NCBI RefSeq assembly: GCF_028282165.1
Contig: NZ_JANQIM010000003.1
Location: 1-64,000, forward strand
DNA from: Winogradskyella sp.
Lineage (GTDB): Bacteria; Bacteroidota; Bacteroidia; Flavobacteriales; Flavobacteriaceae
Direction of reading: 5' to 3'
DNA length: 64,000 nucleotides
A program made the position numbers and the translations under genes. Of the stretch, positions 1-9,571 are shown in pieces. Within the stretch, counting starts at the first letter, position 1; each line of letters starts with the position of its first letter. The notes beneath the pieces were generated by a model. The model saw nothing but the letters and a program-made list of their open reading frames with translations. It was not told where the DNA came from and searched no databases.

Positions 1-1
1 A

Positions 2-1267
2 AGATCGGGGAGCTATGGCCATGACGGCCAGTTTTGGATGGGTGCAGAAGTAGGTTTGGGATTGCAGATGTTTAGCCATCCCGAGGGCTATGTAGAGCGT
101 AACGGCTCGGAATACGATTATGTTTACCAATATAAGGACCACTTGGGTAACATTAGGTTGACCTACATGGATAATAATGGTAGCCTGGATATTATTGAGG
201 AGCATAACTACTATCCCTTTGGCGGGCTTCATAAAGGTTACAACGATGTCGTGTCGGCAAACGTTAATAGTGTTGCGCAGAAATATGGTTTTAATGGACA
301 GCCTTACGAGGAATCTTTGGGGTTAAATGTACAAGAGATGACATTTAGGCATTATGAGCCTAATTTAGGTAGATTTTTTGGTATTGATCCAGCTGCGGAA
401 ATGGCTCATAACTGGACACCTTATCGCTTTGGGTTCAATAACCCTATATTATTTAGTGACCCAACGGGTTTATGGGAAAGGACTGCTGATGGAAGTTGGA
501 CTACTAATGACACTAAGGATATTGAGAGATTTATGAATATGTTGGGATTTGAAGAGTTAAACAATGGAGAGAAAGCTTCAATTGCTCAGATTGACATATT
601 CATTTCTGAAGAATTTAACGGAACTGGCGGAAGGCTAAGTGATGGTAGTATATTGCTAGATGAGGAGACAATAGTCACTGGTAGAAATGGAAATTCTAAT
701 GGTTTTAGCGCTAGGCAAGCAAACAACATTAAAGGTCAAGTAGAGAATTATGGTTCTAATCCTTGGAATGAAAAATCTGCATTCTACTCTGATTTATTTT
801 ATTCATATAAATACTTTAGAGAAAGAAGTTGGCATCAAAATGGAAGTTCGTTTCCTGGTGTGAAATTAGGGTTTTTTGCTGGTAAATATGCTCAAAATCT
901 TTTGTATAATCCAGGTAACTGGTGGTTTTCGACTAAAACGAAAAAGTTCTATGATTGGAAGTTTAATGGAAATGGGTATACGGGAGGACGAGATGGTTAT
1001 ATCGGAAAGTTATCTAAAAAATATAGTAGTATAGCAGGTAATGCAGGTAAATTAGTAGGCGTATATGGTCTTTATAGTACATATGGAGAGTATGCCGAAG
1101 GTAATCTTACAGCCCTTGGTGCCAGCTATATTGGAGGTGTAGATGGTGGAGCTATTGCAAGTAAAAATATTTATGTTGCAGGATGGTCACTGGGTACTGG
1201 AATAGGTAAATCAATAGTTGAAAGCAATTTGTATTTCAATACTTTTCAAAATGCAGCAAATTGGTAA
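2..1267 (+). CDS. Rhs-core C-terminal fragment (module A) with unknown C-terminal toxin-like domain; frame open to window start, 5' truncated
   Basis: Frame 2 is open from base 2 (..RSGSYGHDGQFWMGAEVG). Rhs core motif YQYKDHLGNIRLTYMDNNGSLDIIEEHNYYPFGG, then NWTPYRFGFNNPILFSDPTGLWE boundary. C-terminus is Gly/Ala/hydrophobic-rich (NAGKLVGVYGLYSTYGEYAEGNLTALGASYIGGVDGG). Confidence 0.8.
   Translation, partial: RSGSYGHDGQFWMGAEVGLGLQMFSHPEGYVERNGSEYDYVYQYKDHLGNIRLTYMDNNGSLDIIEEHNYYPFGGLHKGYNDVVSANVNSVAQKYGFNGQPYEESLGLNVQEMTFRHYEPNLGRFFGIDPAAEMAHNWTPYRFGFNNPILFSDPTGLWERTADGSWTTNDTKDIERFMNMLGFEELNNGEKASIAQIDIFISEEFNGTGGRLSDGSILLDEETIVTGRNGNSNGFSARQANNIKGQVENYGSNPWNEKSAFYSDLFYSYKYFRERSWHQNGSSFPGVKLGFFAGKYAQNLLYNPGNWWFSTKTKKFYDWKFNGNGYTGGRDGYIGKLSKKYSSIAGNAGKLVGVYGLYSTYGEYAEGNLTALGASYIGGVDGGAIASKNIYVAGWSLGTGIGKSIVESNLYFNTFQNAANW
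84..282 (+). repeat. Rhs core direct repeat copy A
   Basis: Near-identical by eye to 7757-7957 and strongly similar to 3471-3690 and 5204-5430. Confidence 0.8.
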
Positions 1268-1270
1268 ATT

Positions 1271-1657
1271 ATGATTTATAAAAGATTCTTTTGGTTTTTA
1301 TATTCATATTACAAAAAGGGTAATGTGGATATGTTATTCTCATCAGTATGTGCCATAGTTGGATTACAGGTTTTAAATCTCATATTCATACAAGGTTTTA
1401 TCTTTTTTCATTTAATGAATAGACGAGATTTATCATTTACACCGATTCTTGGAGGAGTTATTATTACACTATTGCTCATAATAAATTATTTGTATTTTAA
1501 ATCTTGTGATATAAAAGCTATAGAAAATGACTATAATGGTTTAAGTAAAGAAGAGAAAAGAGCACATTCTATTTTTTACTTCTTGTATATTGCTATTTCA
1601 ATAATTCTAGCGGTATTAATGGCAGTATCGATAAAAAACAATTTTAAATGGGTATAG
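1271..1657 (+). CDS. Small multi-TM membrane protein, candidate immunity protein for module A
   Basis: Starts 4 nt after module A stop; several hydrophobic stretches (VCAIVGLQVLNLIFIQGFIFFHL, PILGGVIITLLLIINYLYF, IFYFLYIAISIILAVLMAVSI). Confidence 0.65.
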   Translation: MIYKRFFWFLYSYYKKGNVDMLFSSVCAIVGLQVLNLIFIQGFIFFHLMNRRDLSFTPILGGVIITLLLIINYLYFKSCDIKAIENDYNGLSKEEKRAHSIFYFLYIAISIILAVLMAVSIKNNFKWV

Positions 1658-1660
1658 AAG

Positions 1661-1713
1661 GTAGTGTTGTAAAAAAGGGCATGGACTAAAACACTATTTT
1701 AAATAATTGAAAA
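1661..1713 (+). repeat. Intergenic repeat copy R1 (consensus GTARTGTWGTAAAAAAGGNCATGG..TAAA..ATTTTAAAYAATTGAAAA)
   Basis: By-eye similarity to 7405-7457 and 9384-9437. Confidence 0.6.
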
Positions 1714-1776
1714 TCCCGTGGGCTATGAGGAAAAAACGGTGCAGATTATGGTTATGCCTATCAATATAAGGACCAC

Positions 1777-2853
1777 TTGGGTAACGTACGACTTACATAC
1801 GCGGATAGTGATAAAAATGGCTCTATCAATGCTAATACTGAGATAATCTCTGAGAAAAATTATTACCCTTTCGGCCTTTTGCAAAAGGGCTATAACAACA
1901 TAATGAGCGCAAACGCCAACTCTGTAGCCGAAAAGTTTGGCTTTGGGAACAAAGAGTTTAACGATGAACTTGGACTGGATATGTACGATTACGGCGCAAG
2001 AATGTTAGATCCTGCTATAGCAAGATGGTTTAATATAGATGCTAAGGCAGAATTGTATTTTAATTCTACACCTTATAATTACGTTAGAAATTCACCTATC
2101 ATGCGAATAGATCCTAACGGAAACTGGGATATTACTGTACATGTTGCTAAAAATAGAGAAGAAAACGGATATGGTGTAGCCGTAGTTACCAATAGGCATG
2201 GTAAAGAAATTTATAGATTTAAAGTTCGTGTTGAAGGTACTGGAGGTAGAGATAGAATGAAAACCAACGCAGATACCCCTTTAGGCTCTTATGATATTCC
2301 AAATAAAAATATGTGGATAAAAGCTAGCGCTTCTGGCGAAAAAAGAAAATCATATGGACCAAATGATAGGTTAATATTATCCCCGCTTTCAGGTGAAATC
2401 AAGGATAGTGGGAGAACCCTTATAAGAGTTCATGGAGGTAGACAAGAAGTTTATAATAAGGCAACAGGACTTTGGGAAAAAGTAAAGAATCCTAAACTAA
2501 TAAAAACGCACGGCTGTCTAAGATGTTCAGATAATGATGTTTTAACATTAAAAACTTTGGTAGAGCGATTAATGGGAGATGACCCAGATGAATATGGAGG
2601 TGTTTTAAAAGTAATTGATGACTTAGATCAATTTAATTCAAGAGAGAATGAAATACAAGAAATTTTTAAGGGTTTGCTTGCAGACCAATATCCTAATGGT
2701 TTTCCAGTTTTTTCAGAAGCTATGATTTTGTCCGAATTAAGGGCTGAAGCAGAAAACATTTATGCTAAAAGGATGGAAATACTTCAGAAACATTTAGATA
2801 ATGCTATTGAAGCATATGAAGATTATTTGAATGGTAAATCACAAAACTACTAA
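1777..2853 (+). CDS. Rhs-core fragment (module B) with L,D-transpeptidase (YkuD)-like C-terminal domain
   Basis: Core GNVRLTYADSDKNGSINANTEIISEKNYYPFGLLQKGYNN; C-terminal TPLGSYDIPNK...LILSPLSG...TLIRVHGGR...LIKTHGCLRCSDNDV matches the YkuD H...[ST]HGChR catalytic pattern. ORF starts with TTG. Confidence 0.75.
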   Translation: MGNVRLTYADSDKNGSINANTEIISEKNYYPFGLLQKGYNNIMSANANSVAEKFGFGNKEFNDELGLDMYDYGARMLDPAIARWFNIDAKAELYFNSTPYNYVRNSPIMRIDPNGNWDITVHVAKNREENGYGVAVVTNRHGKEIYRFKVRVEGTGGRDRMKTNADTPLGSYDIPNKNMWIKASASGEKRKSYGPNDRLILSPLSGEIKDSGRTLIRVHGGRQEVYNKATGLWEKVKNPKLIKTHGCLRCSDNDVLTLKTLVERLMGDDPDEYGGVLKVIDDLDQFNSRENEIQEIFKGLLADQYPNGFPVFSEAMILSELRAEAENIYAKRMEILQKHLDNAIEAYEDYLNGKSQNY

Positions 2854-2863
2854 TAAATTAAAA

Positions 2864-3424
2864 ATGAAAATAATTTTAATAATATTTATGCTAATCAATA
2901 CTTTTTCATGTATTGAGAAAGAAAAGAATGTCAAGTCTTCTGAAGACCAATATCAATGTAAAGTAGACATCGAACAAATTACTAATCAAGAATATTTAAG
3001 GAAGAAGTTAGTTGATTTTAATTCAGAAGAATCAGATTGTTTAGAAGCTCTATTTTCTTATAGTAAAGTTGCATTTAATGAAAAGGGGGAAAAGACACAA
3101 AACAATTATCTAAAAGCTGTAGAATTTATTTATAATAATTCGAATAGCTTATCATCTACTTTGATTCAAGGTTCAGTATTTAATGATATATTTTATGATA
3201 ATATATATATTGTTACTAAATATTTATTTAATAATAAGGGAAGTTCTTTAGGTAAAGCTTTGCAACTAGGTATAGCATTGGATTTTGTTGTCTTTGAAGG
3301 AAAAGAAAGAGAGGAAAAATATAATGCATTGTATAAAAAGGTTACCAATGAAGTGAAAGATGAAAACCAAAGAAATTATATAGTTAAACTCTTAGATAGT
3401 ATAGATAGAACTTTGTACGATTAA
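2864..3424 (+). CDS. Lipoprotein, candidate immunity protein for module B
   Basis: Likely start at 2864: MKIILIIFMLINTFSC, a lipoprotein signal peptide with lipobox Cys; starts 10 nt after module B stop. The ORF track begins upstream at 2831. Confidence 0.65.
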   Translation: MKIILIIFMLINTFSCIEKEKNVKSSEDQYQCKVDIEQITNQEYLRKKLVDFNSEESDCLEALFSYSKVAFNEKGEKTQNNYLKAVEFIYNNSNSLSSTLIQGSVFNDIFYDNIYIVTKYLFNNKGSSLGKALQLGIALDFVVFEGKEREEKYNALYKKVTNEVKDENQRNYIVKLLDSIDRTLYD

Positions 3425-3470
3425 AACGCGTAATGAGATAGACCAAGGCCTACAAATACTCTCCCTACCC

Positions 3471-3690
3471 GAGGGCTATGTGCAGCGTAACGGCCCTGGT
3501 AGTTATAACTATGCCTATCAATACAAGGACCACTTGGGGAACATTAGGTTGACCTACATGGACAATAATGGCAGCTTGGATATTATCGAGGAACATAACT
3601 ACTATCCCTTTGGCCTAAAGCATAAAGGGTATAATGACGTGGTGTCTGCTAATGTGAATAGTGTGGCGAATAGGTTCAAATATAATGGAA
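3471..3690 (+). repeat. Rhs core direct repeat copy C
   Basis: Shares tayaaggaccacttggggaacattaggttgacctacatggacaataatggcagcttggatattatcgaggaacataactactatccctttgg with other copies. Confidence 0.8.
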
Positions 3691-4592
3691 AAGAGTTGCA
3701 AGATGAGTTAGGATTAACCCTGTATCATTATGGGGCTCGTTTCTACGACCAGTTTACAGCAAGATTTATAAGTATTGACCCAATGTCAGAAGAGTTCCAT
3801 TTTCAGTCACCTTATGTATATGCTGCAAATAACCCAGTTTACTTTGAAGAGAAAAATGGTGAATCACCTGACCCACCAGAAGTTCTTGCATCTGCTCAAT
3901 CTTTTCTTGGAACAATGTACGAATGGGGTGGTAAAAATCCTGAAGATGATTTAGTGGGAACATATAACGATGCAACTGTCGGTGCAGCAAGTGTTAGCCC
4001 GGAAATACAAGGGCGAGGAACAACTAGAGGTGAATTGCAGCAAACTTCAAAAAATCTTAGAAGTTATTACTATGATGGGAAAGGCTCTACACAAGCAGTT
4101 TATGATAAATTTAATGTATCCAATGGCTCCTCTTTTGGAATTGACTGCTCTGGTTTAGCATCAGAAGCCTTTAATTCTGACACTGATAAATTAATGGGTG
4201 ATTTAAGAGTTGGTACAGCTCATGACCAAAGACAACAATTCGCTGACGCTATGCAAGAAGGAACAGGGTTTTTACATGAAAATGCTAATTTAATTGGGAT
4301 GGGAGACTTAGTGTTTTATGAAAATAGTGGAGGAAGAATTACTCATGTAATGGTAGCTACAGGTAAAGTTCAAAAAGATAAAGATGGGAATGTAACAAGA
4401 TTTCAAATAATACATGCACCTCAAAGTGGAGGAAAAGTTGAATATGCTTGGAGAACATTTAGACAAGGGAGGCACTCAGTTGGTCATACTCATAGAAAAG
4501 GAGAAGAAAATAATACAACTAATGTCTGGACTTGGCTATCAAATTTTCTGAGCAATTTTGAAAATTTCACTGAAAACTATCAAAATGAATAA
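3480..4592 (+). CDS. Rhs-core fragment (module C) with NlpC/P60-like cysteine peptidase C-terminal domain
   Basis: Core YQYKDHLGNIRLTYMDNNGSLDIIEEHNYYPFGLKHKGYND; C-terminal YEWGGKNPEDD...FGIDCSGLASEAF...MGDLVFYENSGGRITHVMVATG...FQIIHAPQSGG, the YxWGG/DCSG/GDLVF/HV/IIHA pattern of NlpC/P60. GTG start in track. Confidence 0.82.
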   Translation: MQRNGPGSYNYAYQYKDHLGNIRLTYMDNNGSLDIIEEHNYYPFGLKHKGYNDVVSANVNSVANRFKYNGKELQDELGLTLYHYGARFYDQFTARFISIDPMSEEFHFQSPYVYAANNPVYFEEKNGESPDPPEVLASAQSFLGTMYEWGGKNPEDDLVGTYNDATVGAASVSPEIQGRGTTRGELQQTSKNLRSYYYDGKGSTQAVYDKFNVSNGSSFGIDCSGLASEAFNSDTDKLMGDLRVGTAHDQRQQFADAMQEGTGFLHENANLIGMGDLVFYENSGGRITHVMVATGKVQKDKDGNVTRFQIIHAPQSGGKVEYAWRTFRQGRHSVGHTHRKGEENNTTNVWTWLSNFLSNFENFTENYQNE

Positions 4593-4595
4593 TTT

Positions 4596-5168
4596 ATGAA
4601 AACAAGAATCTTTATATTTTTATTATTATCCGTTTTTTCATGTAGAAACTTTAATGATAAAAACGATGAAAATAGTGTAACTAATAAATCAGCTATAGAC
4701 GACAAAAAAGAAATTACTAATTGTAGTCGCCACAAAAGTCATTTTGACTCAATACCATATGAGGAGAAGTTAGACTTTAAAGTTTCTTTTGATATTATTA
4801 AATGTCAATTAACGAAAAAAATTAATCTGAATAAGTATAACTATGCGGAATTATTATCAAAATATAACTATAAGGAATATAGTATCTATTTATATAGATT
4901 AAACTGCATAGCAGGTGGAGGGTGCGGAGATTATCTTATGTCAGTTATTAATAGAAGTTTGGAAGTTACAGAATCAAAAATTATAGCAAGTGAAATTTCA
5001 GAGGGAGAGAATAACATTACAGTAACTAATTTTAAATTTAATAAAGGAAAATTTAGTTTTGAAATATCATCCGAGTATTATAGTGAAGAATTAGACGATT
5101 ATGTGGAAAGCTCCAAGTCTGAAAGTTATTTAGTTACTGATTTAGGACAAATACAGACAAGCAACTAA
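4596..5168 (+). CDS. Lipoprotein, candidate immunity protein for module C
   Basis: MKTRIFIFLLLSVFSCRNFNDKND: lipoprotein signal; begins 4 nt after module C stop. Confidence 0.68.
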   Translation: MKTRIFIFLLLSVFSCRNFNDKNDENSVTNKSAIDDKKEITNCSRHKSHFDSIPYEEKLDFKVSFDIIKCQLTKKINLNKYNYAELLSKYNYKEYSIYLYRLNCIAGGGCGDYLMSVINRSLEVTESKIIASEISEGENNITVTNFKFNKGKFSFEISSEYYSEELDDYVESSKSESYLVTDLGQIQTSN

Positions 5169-5203
5169 AGTAGTTTAATTAAGAAGGTAAAGCTAAAAAT
5201 CCC

Positions 5204-5430
5204 AAGGGTAATGTGGAAAAAAATGACTCGGAATACGACTATGTTTACCAATATAAGGACCATTTGGGGAACATTAGGTTGACCTACATGGACAATAATG
5301 GCAGCTTGGATATTATCGAGGAGCATAACTACTATCCCTTTGGGTTAGAGCATAAAGGGTATAATGACATGGTAAGTGCGAATGTGAACTCGGTGGCGAG
5401 CAGGTTTAAGTATAATGACAGAGAGTTTGA
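5204..5430 (+). repeat. Rhs core direct repeat copy D
   Basis: Same core DNA segment as copies A, C and E. Confidence 0.8.
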
Positions 5431-6337
5431 AGAAGCGTTAGGTCTGAATCTTAATGAAATGGACTTTAGGCAGTATGATAATGTATTAGGTAAATTTATG
5501 GCTGTTGACCCATTAGCTGAAAACTACCATAACTGGACACCTTATAGATTTGGGTTTAATAATCCAATTTTTTATTCTGATCCTCTAGGGTTGATTGAAG
5601 AAAGTGTTTTATTGGATGTATTTAATCGAAGTTCTCATGGAACGAAATGGTATAATGATGGATTCTCAGGTTTTTATACTAATGATGGTGGTTACGTTGG
5701 CTACATGAGTAATGACAGATCTTTTAACTCTTCACCTGAAAGTACTACAGTGTTGCCAGAAGTAACAGTGAAAAAAGATGATCCATTAAGTACGCAAGAG
5801 GCAGCTTGGCTAATTGAAATGAACATTTATAAGACTCATTATTATACTTATGAAACTATTGTAGGTCAAAGAAAACCACACAATATATGGGAAAGATGGT
5901 CATTTTCTGATAATTTTGTAGCAAATTTTTCATATAATGTAGCAAGTGATTTATTTCAAGTTGTACAAGTATTTGATTTTGATTTAATACCGAGTAGAAC
6001 AAATCCTTTGACTGGCGGAAAAGCTTTTATTAATATTGATGGCTCTGCTAATTACAAACCTACAGAAGGTGTTGTCAGTACAGCTACCTTCGGGCTACCT
6101 TTTGGGACAGGAAGTAAGGCATATAGTTCAATTGCACCTAAAGGCCTGGGGTATTTGAAAAAATTCAATGCTGCACAATTTTCTAAACTTTTTAAAGGTA
6201 ATCTAAGTCGCCTTAGTCCTAAAAACAGAGGTTTACTTAATCGTGGTTTAAATAAAGGAGTTGATGCATACAATAATCAAATTCCTAATGGGATGATAGT
6301 GTTAAAATCTATTTGGTTAGATAGTGATGAAGATTAA
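5213..6337 (+). CDS. Rhs-core fragment (module D) with unknown C-terminal toxin-like domain
   Basis: Core EKNDSEYDYVYQYKDHLGNIRLTYMDNNGSLDIIEEHNYYPFGLEHKGYND; boundary NWTPYRFGFNNPIFYSDPLGLIEE; linker STTVLPEVTVKK; basic C-terminus (GYLKKFNAAQFSKLFKGNLSRLSPKNRGLLNRGLNKG). GTG start. Confidence 0.78.
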   Translation: MEKNDSEYDYVYQYKDHLGNIRLTYMDNNGSLDIIEEHNYYPFGLEHKGYNDMVSANVNSVASRFKYNDREFEEALGLNLNEMDFRQYDNVLGKFMAVDPLAENYHNWTPYRFGFNNPIFYSDPLGLIEESVLLDVFNRSSHGTKWYNDGFSGFYTNDGGYVGYMSNDRSFNSSPESTTVLPEVTVKKDDPLSTQEAAWLIEMNIYKTHYYTYETIVGQRKPHNIWERWSFSDNFVANFSYNVASDLFQVVQVFDFDLIPSRTNPLTGGKAFINIDGSANYKPTEGVVSTATFGLPFGTGSKAYSSIAPKGLGYLKKFNAAQFSKLFKGNLSRLSPKNRGLLNRGLNKGVDAYNNQIPNGMIVLKSIWLDSDED

Positions 6338-6340
6338 ATT

Positions 6341-6568
6341 ATGGAAGCAATATTTCAAATATTGATTGAGTCAATTTTGGTAAATTTTTTAGGATTGAAT
6401 ACTCGATATTATTTTTTTAAATTGATAGGAATGAAAAAATCAAAAAAAGACCTATCTCTAAAACCCCAAAAGCGAAGTAATAACTTCATTTCTCAATATA
6501 TGCTAAATTTTGCGGTTGGTCTAATAGTTTTTTTAGGATTAGGTTTTGTAATTTCTTTACTTTTCTAA
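6341..6568 (+). CDS. Small membrane protein downstream of module D
   Basis: 75 aa, C-terminal TM-like segment MLNFAVGLIVFLGLGFVISLLF; 4 nt after module D stop. Confidence 0.5.
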   Translation: MEAIFQILIESILVNFLGLNTRYYFFKLIGMKKSKKDLSLKPQKRSNNFISQYMLNFAVGLIVFLGLGFVISLLF

Positions 6569-6586
6569 AAATTAAAAACTCAAAAA

Positions 6587-7394
6587 ATGAAAAAGTATTT
6601 TTTTTATTTTATCGTTCTAGCATTAATAATTACCACTAGTAATGCTCAAGACATGGTTAAAGTAAACTATTATAATGAAGTTTATATCAAAGAAGCTGGA
6701 AACATTTATAATAATTTTAAAGAAGGTCTTTGGGTTTATTTTGGTGAAAATGGTGCATTTGATAGATATTCTTTTTTTTTCAGAAGGAATTGAAACTAAA
6801 AGTGATGACCTTAAAATTATCTATTATGAGAACAATAATCTTAAAGAAATTGGATTACTAAAACATGGTATGAAATCTGGTATATGGTTTAAGTTTAGAC
6901 AAAATGAATCATTAGAATCGATTGAGAATTACGTTGATAATAATTTAAATGGTATTCGTAATGTGTTTTACCCTGACGGTCAGCTATTTATAACTGAATT
7001 TTATATTGAAGGAAAAAGAGATGGCGATTTCAAAGAATATCATTTTGGTGGATCATTGCATACTATTACTAGATTTGAAAAGGATGTATTAAAAGATGGC
7101 TTACAGACTTATTATTTTCCAAACGGAAATAAGAAAATTGTTCAAAATTATTTAAATGGAAAGTTTTATGGTGAATATTTAACTTTTTACCATTCAGGGA
7201 ATATAAAAATTAAAGGACAATATAATTCAAAAGGCCTTAAGGAAGGAATTTGGTATGAGTATTATGAAAATGGAAATATAAAAGAGAAATATTCTGTGAG
7301 AGATGGCTTATGGCATGGGAAATATGAAGTTTTTGACGAAAAAGGAAAAATTATTAAATCAGAAATTTATAATAAAGACAAAAAGATTGGGTAG
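6587..7394 (+). pseudogene. MORN-repeat / YwqK-type antitoxin-like secreted protein interrupted by a frameshift at a T9 run
   Basis: ORF 6587-6793 has a signal peptide (MKKYFFYFIVLALIITTSNAQ) and first repeat (GLWVYFGENGAFDRYSFFF). ORF 6675-7394 continues in another frame (SEGIETKSDD...GIWFKFRQNESL...GIWYEYYENGNIKEKYSVRDGLWHGKYEVFDEKGK). Frames join at T9 (6772-6780). Confidence 0.75.
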
Positions 7395-7404
7395 TGGATA
7401 ACGG

Positions 7405-7457
7405 GTAATGTAGTAAAAAAGGTCATAGATTAAAATATGATTTTAAACAATTGAAAA
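7405..7457 (+). repeat. Intergenic repeat copy R2
   Basis: gtaatgtagtaaaaaaggtcatagattaaaatatgattttaaacaattgaaaa; similar to R1 and R3. Confidence 0.6.
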
Positions 7458-7460
7458 CCA

Positions 7461-8744
7461 ATGGTTAGCGTAAAATCTAATTGTTACGCGGATAACATAT
7501 CCGCGCTATCTGGATATAACCATCTCAATCTACCAACGCTAGTGGAGATCAATGGGCCCTTGTTTACCAGTGACGACGATAACGGTGTTATAGAATATGT
7601 GTACGATGCCACGGGCACAAAACTGGAGAAGAAGGTCTCCGAGTATTATTCCAAGAGCATCCGCAGTGTAGAATGCACCCGGTACGCAGGCCATTTTGTA
7701 TATGTAAAAAGGGGAAACCTTCAGTCGCCCTTTAAACTCTCCTTCTTCAACCAGCCCGAAGGTTATGTAGAGCGTAACGGCTCGGAATACGATTATGTTT
7801 ACCAATATAAGGACCACTTGGGTAACATTAGGTTGACCTATATGGACAATAATGGCAGCTTGGATATTATCGAGGAGCATAACTACTATCCTTTTGGCGG
7901 GCTTCATAAAGGTTACAACGATGTCGTGTCGGCAAACGTTAATAGTGTGGCGCAGAAGTTCAAGTATAATGGCAAGGAGTTAGAAGAATCTTTAGGTTAT
8001 GGAATGTACGAATACGAAGCGAGACATTACGACCCTTGGACAGCAAGGTTCGTAACGATTGACCCATTGGCAGAAGACTATAATTTCCAGTCGACTTATG
8101 CGTATGCAATTAATAATCCAATATTCTTTATAGATAAACTTGGTATGGGGCCATGGATACCAAATGGTGATGGTACTTGGACTGCTGAAGCTGGAGATAG
8201 TGCATCAACCTTATCAAGAGATGCTGGAATTTCTTTTGAGAGAGCTAAAGAAATAATGGCCAGTACACCAAAAGAAAACTCATCTTTAGGAAACATGGGT
8301 ACGTATATCGACACTAAAGATGGTGTGGAAAAATCAGCGGTTGATCCAGGAGATATAGTTGCAATACCCGAGCAAGTAGAGGAACATCAAGAAATCGCAT
8401 CAATAATAGATAATAGTTCTTTTTCTGCTAAGGAAATGACTAAGGATATGGTACAAGCAACCGACAATGATGAGGCTAAAGAAGATATGGTTAATTGGGA
8501 GCCAGAGAAGCCAGATATTAGTTTGAAAGGTGTTGTTAAAGGGATGGGCGGCTCAGGCTTTTCTCCATTTAATTGCCCAATGTGTCCACCATCAAATGCT
8601 GGTCCTTCAGGTATAGGTTATAACACATATAGAATAATTCTCATTGAAACTCACAAAAGAGATCATGTACCGGTTTTAAAAAGAATACAAGATTCGATAA
8701 ATAATGATAAAGCAACCAAAAGGGAAGAAGAAGAAAATGACTAA
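7461..8744 (+). CDS. Rhs-core fragment (module E), longest core, with unknown C-terminal domain preceded by a LysM-like segment
   Basis: SGYNHLNLPTLVEI...VIEYVYDATGTKLEKKVSEYY...YVYQYKDHLGNIRLTYMDNNGSLDIIEEHNYYPFGGLHKGYND; then DGTWTAEAGDSASTLSRDAGISFERAKEIM (LysM-like) and an unknown tail with CPMC. Confidence 0.8.
   Translation: MVSVKSNCYADNISALSGYNHLNLPTLVEINGPLFTSDDDNGVIEYVYDATGTKLEKKVSEYYSKSIRSVECTRYAGHFVYVKRGNLQSPFKLSFFNQPEGYVERNGSEYDYVYQYKDHLGNIRLTYMDNNGSLDIIEEHNYYPFGGLHKGYNDVVSANVNSVAQKFKYNGKELEESLGYGMYEYEARHYDPWTARFVTIDPLAEDYNFQSTYAYAINNPIFFIDKLGMGPWIPNGDGTWTAEAGDSASTLSRDAGISFERAKEIMASTPKENSSLGNMGTYIDTKDGVEKSAVDPGDIVAIPEQVEEHQEIASIIDNSSFSAKEMTKDMVQATDNDEAKEDMVNWEPEKPDISLKGVVKGMGGSGFSPFNCPMCPPSNAGPSGIGYNTYRIILIETHKRDHVPVLKRIQDSINNDKATKREEEEND
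7757..7957 (+). repeat. Rhs core direct repeat copy E
   Basis: Near-identical to copy A (84-282), including GGLHKGYNDVVSANVNSVAQK. Confidence 0.8.
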
Positions 8745-9375
8745 AAAGACAATTTTATACCTTTTAACCTTACTTTTATTCTATATTTTAGAATACGTTT
8801 TGGGCTTTTTTTTAACAAAAGGGTTTACTAACTTATTACTAAAAATAGAACCCAAAAATTATCTTTTAAATTTTAATATAAGTCTTATATTATCTAAGTT
8901 ATTGATATTTTTTTTGGTACTATTTTTAATTTCAAAAATTAAGATTAAGAATTTAATTAGATATTCAAAAATTGACTATAAACTAGTAATCTTTAGTCTT
9001 GTTATAGGTTTAGGTTATTTTATAATAAATAGATATATTTTCGATGCAAATTTCAAGATGAATATTAAACCTGACGCATATAATAGTTCGTTGCTATATT
9101 TAAGTGGTGCAATAGTTATTGGACCTATATATGAAGAGGTTTTATATAGGGGAATTGGTTTTGAATTTTTAAAATCTACTGGCATATCGGATGCAGTAAT
9201 AATAATTTTCACTTCTCTTGTATTTGGCTTGATTCATTTGCCAGATTTAGATGCGGTTTTTGGAACTTTTGCTTTAGGTCTGATTTGCTCAATTTGCTAT
9301 TTAAAGACAAGAAATATCATTTACCCTATTTGTATACATGCATTTTATAACTTTCTTATGTTTAACATAATCTAG
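8737..9375 (+). CDS. CPBP (Abi/CAAX-like) family intramembrane protease-like protein, candidate immunity for module E
   Basis: Likely ATG at 8737 overlapping module E stop by 8 nt. Motifs EEVLYRG, FGLIHLPD, YPICIHAFYNFL and multiple TM segments. ORF track starts upstream at 8704. Confidence 0.82.
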   Translation: MTKKTILYLLTLLLFYILEYVLGFFLTKGFTNLLLKIEPKNYLLNFNISLILSKLLIFFLVLFLISKIKIKNLIRYSKIDYKLVIFSLVIGLGYFIINRYIFDANFKMNIKPDAYNSSLLYLSGAIVIGPIYEEVLYRGIGFEFLKSTGISDAVIIIFTSLVFGLIHLPDLDAVFGTFALGLICSICYLKTRNIIYPICIHAFYNFLMFNII

Positions 9376-9383
9376 GTTGTTAG

Positions 9384-9437
9384 GGTAGTGTTTTAAAATA
9401 GGACACGACACCATATAAGAGCTTAAATAATTGAAAA
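9384..9437 (+). repeat. Intergenic repeat copy R3
   Basis: ggtagtgttttaaaataggacacgacaccatataagagcttaaataattgaaaa; similar to R1/R2. Confidence 0.5.
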
Positions 9438-9571
9438 ACAGTAATTAACCGAAATGGCAGTCGCTGTTTTTCTTTGTTCATTGATATATTGGCAAAAGAG
9501 AAAATCCTTTAGAACCTGTAAAATAAGGGTTTGTAAAACCGTTATGTTTTAAATTAGGACATGGAGGTGAA

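What the first reader, a model, noticed from the sequence alone, without database searches (positions are those of the whole stretch)
1777..3424. Rhs tip B: L,D-transpeptidase (YkuD)-like toxin paired with a lipoprotein
The tip has TPLGSYDIP, IRVHGG and THGCLRCSD, matching the YkuD catalytic H...[ST]HGChR pattern. YkuD-type folds serve as antibacterial effectors in the Tlde1 family. The downstream gene is a lipoprotein, suiting protection in the periplasm.
Basis: partly seen in the sequence, partly recalled or inferred. Interest (0 to 1): 0.75.

Follow-up and report, generated by a model that had tools for sequence, protein, structure and literature searches.

The report
Cell-wall-cutting Rhs toxin tip cassette
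This is a stored, interchangeable toxin tip that very probably attacks the peptidoglycan of rival bacteria using an L,D-transpeptidase-type enzyme, together with the small membrane-anchored protein that protects its owner; the kind was predicted in 2012, so it is a clear new example, not a new principle.

Summary
The frame containing TPLGSYDIP, IRVHGG and THGCLRCSD is present. The tip scores above Pfam's cut-off for YkuD (PF03734; 23.8-24.7 vs 23.4 bits), and it is fused to the end of an Rhs core. I found eight intact relatives, all Bacteroidota: one in a named genome (Hymenobacter) and seven in about 1,600 genome searches. The catalytic His, the Cys and the T-x-G-C-hydrophobic-R motif are kept in 9/9. 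The next gene encodes a protein with an N-terminal export signal in 9/9, with a clear or plausible lipoprotein cysteine in 8/9. In one relative the same domain ends a protein encoded in a T6SS-iii cluster. This supports an antibacterial, periplasm-acting role. Corrections: 1777 is not a gene start; the frame has no plausible start, so this is an orphan cassette in an array of Rhs tips. The toxin domain proper is 2122-2850 and the lipoprotein is best started at 2864. AlphaFold was uninformative (pLDDT 37-42, two sequences), so the fold rests on profile evidence. Rhs-linked L,D-peptidase toxins ("Tox-LD-peptidase", Bacteroidetes included) with secreted or membrane immunity proteins were described in 2012 (PMC3482391): new member of a known kind. 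It resembles Tlde1 in chemistry but not as a family.

The parts
1660..1713 (+). 54-nt intergenic repeat at the upstream border of the cassette, also at 7404-7457 and 9384-9437
   Evidence: the repeat finder family D5; also found by blastn, incl. contig C46
1735..1812 (+). Core repeat (QYKDHLGN[IV]RLTY) shared by all five tip cassettes of the window; probable recombination homology
   Evidence: the repeat finder family D2, 5 copies 74-97% identical to the reference copy; identical 33-bp stretch in C46
1729..2121 (+). Rhs-associated core fragment in frame with the toxin; no plausible start codon (stops at 1708 and 1726, first ATG 1903)
   Evidence: TIGR03696 1.7e-12; codon audit
2122..2628 (+). 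YkuD-type L,D-peptidase toxin domain, beginning just after the DPNG end of the Rhs core
   Evidence: PF03734 24.7 bits vs 23.4 cut-off; 8 intact relatives
2431..2433 (+). Predicted catalytic His (tip residue H104)
   Evidence: kept in all tips and in a bridging YkuD enzyme that aligns to the B. subtilis YkuD structure
2506..2523 (+). THGCLR motif; predicted nucleophile Cys132 at 2515-2517
   Evidence: T-x-G-C-hydrophobic-R in 9/9 tips
2629..2850 (+). C-terminal extension, predicted helical and not conserved; two relatives carry an SH3_3 domain here instead
   Evidence: alignment A3; helix 199-236 in the model; SH3_3 hits
2864..3424 (+). Putative immunity lipoprotein, lipobox TFSC with Cys16 at 2909-2911 (alternative start 2831)
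   Evidence: sequence and lipobox scan; exported partner gene in 9/9 loci

Best explanation
The locus is an orphan Rhs tip plus immunity cassette. When joined by recombination to a full-length Rhs gene, the tip would be delivered to the periplasm of a neighbouring bacterium. There a YkuD-type cysteine enzyme (His104, Cys132 of the tip) would attack the L-D bond (position 3 to D-Ala4) of peptidoglycan stem peptides. It would act as an L,D-carboxypeptidase, L,D-endopeptidase or D-amino-acid exchanger and so disturb wall synthesis. The lipoprotein encoded 10 nt downstream would be anchored in the owner's envelope and block the enzyme there. Shown: domain family, conserved catalytic residues, Rhs fusion, exported partner in every relative, absence of a plausible start codon, repeated core segments in the array. 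Inferred: toxicity, exact bond, neutralisation, recombination-based use, delivery route.
For: YkuD profile hit over the cut-off here and in L040, L043, L044 and L047. The tip profile finds an ordinary YkuD enzyme (L046, E=1.8e-4), which aligns to B. subtilis YkuD structures with His and Cys in register. Nine tips share H...T-x-G-C-[hydrophobic]-R. Partner gene exported in 9/9. One relative sits in a T6SS-iii cluster. SH3_3 domains on two tips and one partner. The neighbouring NlpC/P60 tip, another wall enzyme, also has a lipoprotein partner, while several other tips in the genome have partners without an export signal. Array of tips with shared core DNA. Rhs N-termini with signal peptides at contig ends C31 and C16.
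Against: The YkuD score only just passes the cut-off here, and one relative (L039) gives no YkuD hit at all. AlphaFold models had pLDDT 37-42 and say nothing about the fold. The H-to-T spacing is longer than the textbook motif. Partner proteins are barely alike (best pairs 20-28% over part of the length) and match no known immunity family, so the immunity role rests on position and export signal. No delivery system was identified in this genome: T6SS markers VipA and TssC gave no match. The cassette may be silent.
Confidence: 0.8

Rival explanations
1. Decayed leftover: the tip was displaced from a former Rhs gene and is never expressed; only the lipoprotein still matters, as protection against kin that carry the active toxin.
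For: No plausible start codon, no clear promoter above the shuffled background; array organisation at 1-9500.
Against: The frame is intact to the stop codon with every catalytic residue kept; shared core DNA would allow reuse. A truncated relative (L045) shows what decay looks like.
Confidence: 0.3
2. The YkuD domain is a modified or inactive version that binds peptidoglycan or serves another role, not a wall-damaging enzyme.
For: The His of HGC is W, Y, A or N in four of nine tips; borderline Pfam score.
Against: The catalytic His and Cys never vary. B. subtilis YkuD itself has SKGC at this place. In Tlde1a the H129A change at the corresponding position kept D-amino-acid exchange but reduced crosslinking (PMC9638812).
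Confidence: 0.1
3. A housekeeping L,D-transpeptidase (wall crosslinking) that happens to lie near Rhs genes.
For: Same Pfam family.
Against: Fused in frame to the Rhs core here and in most relatives, and part of a T6SS-cluster protein in another; patchy presence, at most a few genomes per 400 searched.
Confidence: 0.02

Closest known systems
Tox-LD-peptidase of polymorphic toxin systems (Zhang et al. 2012, PMC3482391)
   Same: L,D-peptidase domain at the C-terminus of RHS-repeat proteins, reported in Bacteroidetes among others; linked immunity genes, a subset of them secreted or membrane proteins
   Different: The partner here has no match to a named immunity family (the paper lists Imm16 and Imm57), and its likely lipoprotein form is not described there for this toxin
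Tlde1 / Tldi1 T6SS effector-immunity pair (PMC9638812)
   Same: L,D-transpeptidase motif with His and Cys, antibacterial periplasmic action with a partner immunity gene
   Different: Found by the YkuD profile PF03734 with no Tlde1-type hit; carried on Rhs; no T6SS found in this genome; the second His of the motif varies between relatives
B. subtilis YkuD (PDB 1y7m)
   Same: Catalytic His and Cys region, via a bridging sequence
   Different: Housekeeping enzyme, not fused to Rhs, no partner gene known to me
Orphan Rhs/CDI toxin-immunity modules
   Same: Start-less C-terminal tips with partner genes downstream of shared core DNA
   Different: Array in Bacteroidota, linked to DUF6443-type Rhs with Sec signal peptides

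Membership tests
YkuD L,D-transpeptidase domain (PF03734) | Profile score above the curated cut-off | tested here: met
   23.8 and 24.7 bits vs 23.4
YkuD L,D-transpeptidase domain (PF03734) | Catalytic His, and [ST]-x-G-C-hydrophobic with the Cys | tested here: met
   H104, T129, C132; conserved in 9/9
YkuD L,D-transpeptidase domain (PF03734) | 14-17 residues between the His and [ST]HGC | tested here: not met
   24 residues here; 14 in relative L044, 18 in L040, so a loop insertion rather than a different site (counted)
YkuD L,D-transpeptidase domain (PF03734) | Beta-rich YkuD fold | tested here: inconclusive
   AlphaFold pLDDT 42 and 37 with two sequences
YkuD L,D-transpeptidase domain (PF03734) | L,D-peptidase activity on peptidoglycan | not testable with these tools
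   needs a muropeptide assay
Tox-LD-peptidase polymorphic toxin | L,D-peptidase domain C-terminal to RHS repeats | tested here: met
   Rhs core plus YkuD in one frame here; full-length 1874-aa protein in Hymenobacter
Tox-LD-peptidase polymorphic toxin | Adjacent immunity gene, exported | tested here: met
   by position and export signal, 9/9 loci; neutralisation not tested
Tox-LD-peptidase polymorphic toxin | Partner belongs to Imm16 or Imm57 | tested here: inconclusive
   no such Pfam hit; partners too divergent to judge
Tlde1 | Matches the Tlde1 sequence family | tested here: not met
   only PF03734 hits, no Tlde1-type Pfam family
Tlde1 | Delivered by a T6SS | tested here: not met
   no VipA (PF05591) and no TssC (PF17541) in this genome, with positive controls; a relative in G947 is in a T6SS cluster
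Orphan Rhs tip cassette | Core fragment without its own start, shared core DNA with other cassettes, partner gene downstream | tested here: met

The most novel reading that the evidence does not exclude
A Bacteroidota toxin subfamily in which one L,D-peptidase tip, always with an exported (mostly lipoprotein) immunity partner, moves between Sec-exported Rhs proteins and T6SS-iii effectors, and in which loss of the second motif His in some members shifts the activity from crosslinking towards carboxypeptidase or D-amino-acid exchange.
Probability: 0.35. Interest if true: 0.45.

Novelty: new member of a known kind. Interest (0 to 1): 0.33.

Why it matters
It gives a testable effector-immunity pair for a toxin class predicted in 2012 (I found no test of a Rhs-borne member in the papers searched). 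The lipoprotein partners show where protection is needed. The same tip on Rhs and T6SS carriers points to a shared target compartment, and bears on how Sec-exported Rhs proteins of Bacteroidota reach rivals.

Tried and rejected
PDB sequence search with the tips found only the Rhs part or chance hits. No relatives in plasmids or viral contigs. T6SS in the own genome: none with two markers; T9SS genes were not searched. Same-genus genomes did not show an intact version of this array. Promoter scan not above background. Tlde1 membership and the housekeeping reading were rejected.

Full report
What is there. Its first part is an Rhs-associated core (TIGR03696, 1.7e-12) that ends in DPNG at about 2118. 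The rest, 2122-2850, matches the YkuD L,D-transpeptidase family at 24.7 bits against a cut-off of 23.4. The frame is open only from a TGA at 1726, with no ATG before 1903, and 1777 is a TTG inside the core. It is therefore a displaced tip, one of five in an array at 1-9500 that share core DNA (families D1-D4) and, in part, a 54-nt intergenic repeat (D5). Similar tips lie at the ends of contigs C46, C24, C39 and C7. Contigs C31 and C16 end inside Rhs genes that start with a signal peptide and DUF6443, so the assembly seems to break in near-identical Rhs bodies. Which tip is joined to a full body cannot be read here.

Relatives. Intact tips were found in Hymenobacter gummosus, as the end of an 1874-aa Rhs protein with signal peptide, LRRs and DUF6443, and in G244, G226, G533, G416, G947, G1299 and G1104. 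A truncated copy lies in G519. The family is rare and patchy: at most 2 to 3 carriers per 400 genomes beyond the window's own. The catalytic His and the T-x-G-C-hydrophobic-R motif are kept in all nine tips; the His of HGC is W, Y, A or N in four. A profile of four tips also found an ordinary YkuD enzyme (L046). That enzyme aligns to the B. subtilis YkuD structure with His and Cys in register, where the motif reads SKGC, so variation at that His is normal for the fold.

Partner gene. In all nine loci the next gene encodes a protein with an N-terminal export signal. Eight have a clear or plausible lipoprotein Cys, of which L047 is less typical; L043 is ambiguous. The partners are very divergent and match no named immunity family. 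In the same genome, the NlpC/P60 tip at 3480-4592 also has a lipoprotein partner, whereas partners of several other tips in C46, C24 and C39 lack an export signal. This fits a partner placed where the enzyme acts.

A second carrier. In G947 the domain is the C-terminus of a 734-aa protein in a T6SS-iii cluster, after TssC, three Hcp-like genes (one confirmed as TssD) and a DUF4280 PAAR-like gene, and before a lipoprotein with an SH3_3 domain. This is the strongest hint that the tip is an antibacterial effector. The window's own genome has no VipA or TssC match, so its Rhs proteins probably leave by another route, starting with Sec.

Known or new. Zhang et al. 2012 (PMC3482391) list Tox-LD-peptidase in RHS toxins, Bacteroidetes included, and note secreted or membrane immunity proteins for a subset. 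Tlde1 (PMC9638812) shows the chemistry: L,D-carboxypeptidase and D-amino-acid exchange leading to swelling and death. The finding is therefore a new member of a known kind. What is added here is a Bacteroidota subfamily with lipoprotein-type partners that occurs on two kinds of carrier.

Limits. The fold is not shown by structure prediction. Toxicity, bond specificity, immunity and use of the silent cassette are inferred.

Noticed in passing
3480-5168: Rhs tip with an NlpC/P60 domain (PF00877, 27.6 bits vs 23), a second likely wall-cutting toxin, followed by a lipoprotein.
   Followed up: partly
1660-1713, 7404-7457, 9384-9437: A 54-nt intergenic repeat ending in AATTGAAAA, after partner genes and before the next cassette; a copy also in contig C46 (L033 about 1762-1815).
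   Followed up: partly
7461-9375: Rhs tip followed by a CPBP/Rce1-like membrane protease (PF02517, 2.2e-21) in the immunity position.
   Followed up: no
1-1657: Tip A runs off the contig start in frame; its partner is a small membrane protein.
   Followed up: no
contigs C31 and C16 (L049, L050): Both contigs end within an Rhs gene with signal peptide and DUF6443; the missing bodies look like collapsed repeats.
   Followed up: partly
L053:9622-11826: T6SS-iii cluster protein that also seems to carry a lysozyme/transglycosylase-like stretch before the YkuD domain (seen by eye; no Pfam hit).
   Followed up: no
L040 and L044 tips: C-terminal SH3_3 domain after the YkuD domain, perhaps for peptidoglycan binding.
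   Followed up: no
L045 (G519): Truncated copy of the tip, with a stop about 20 residues into the toxin domain.
   Followed up: no
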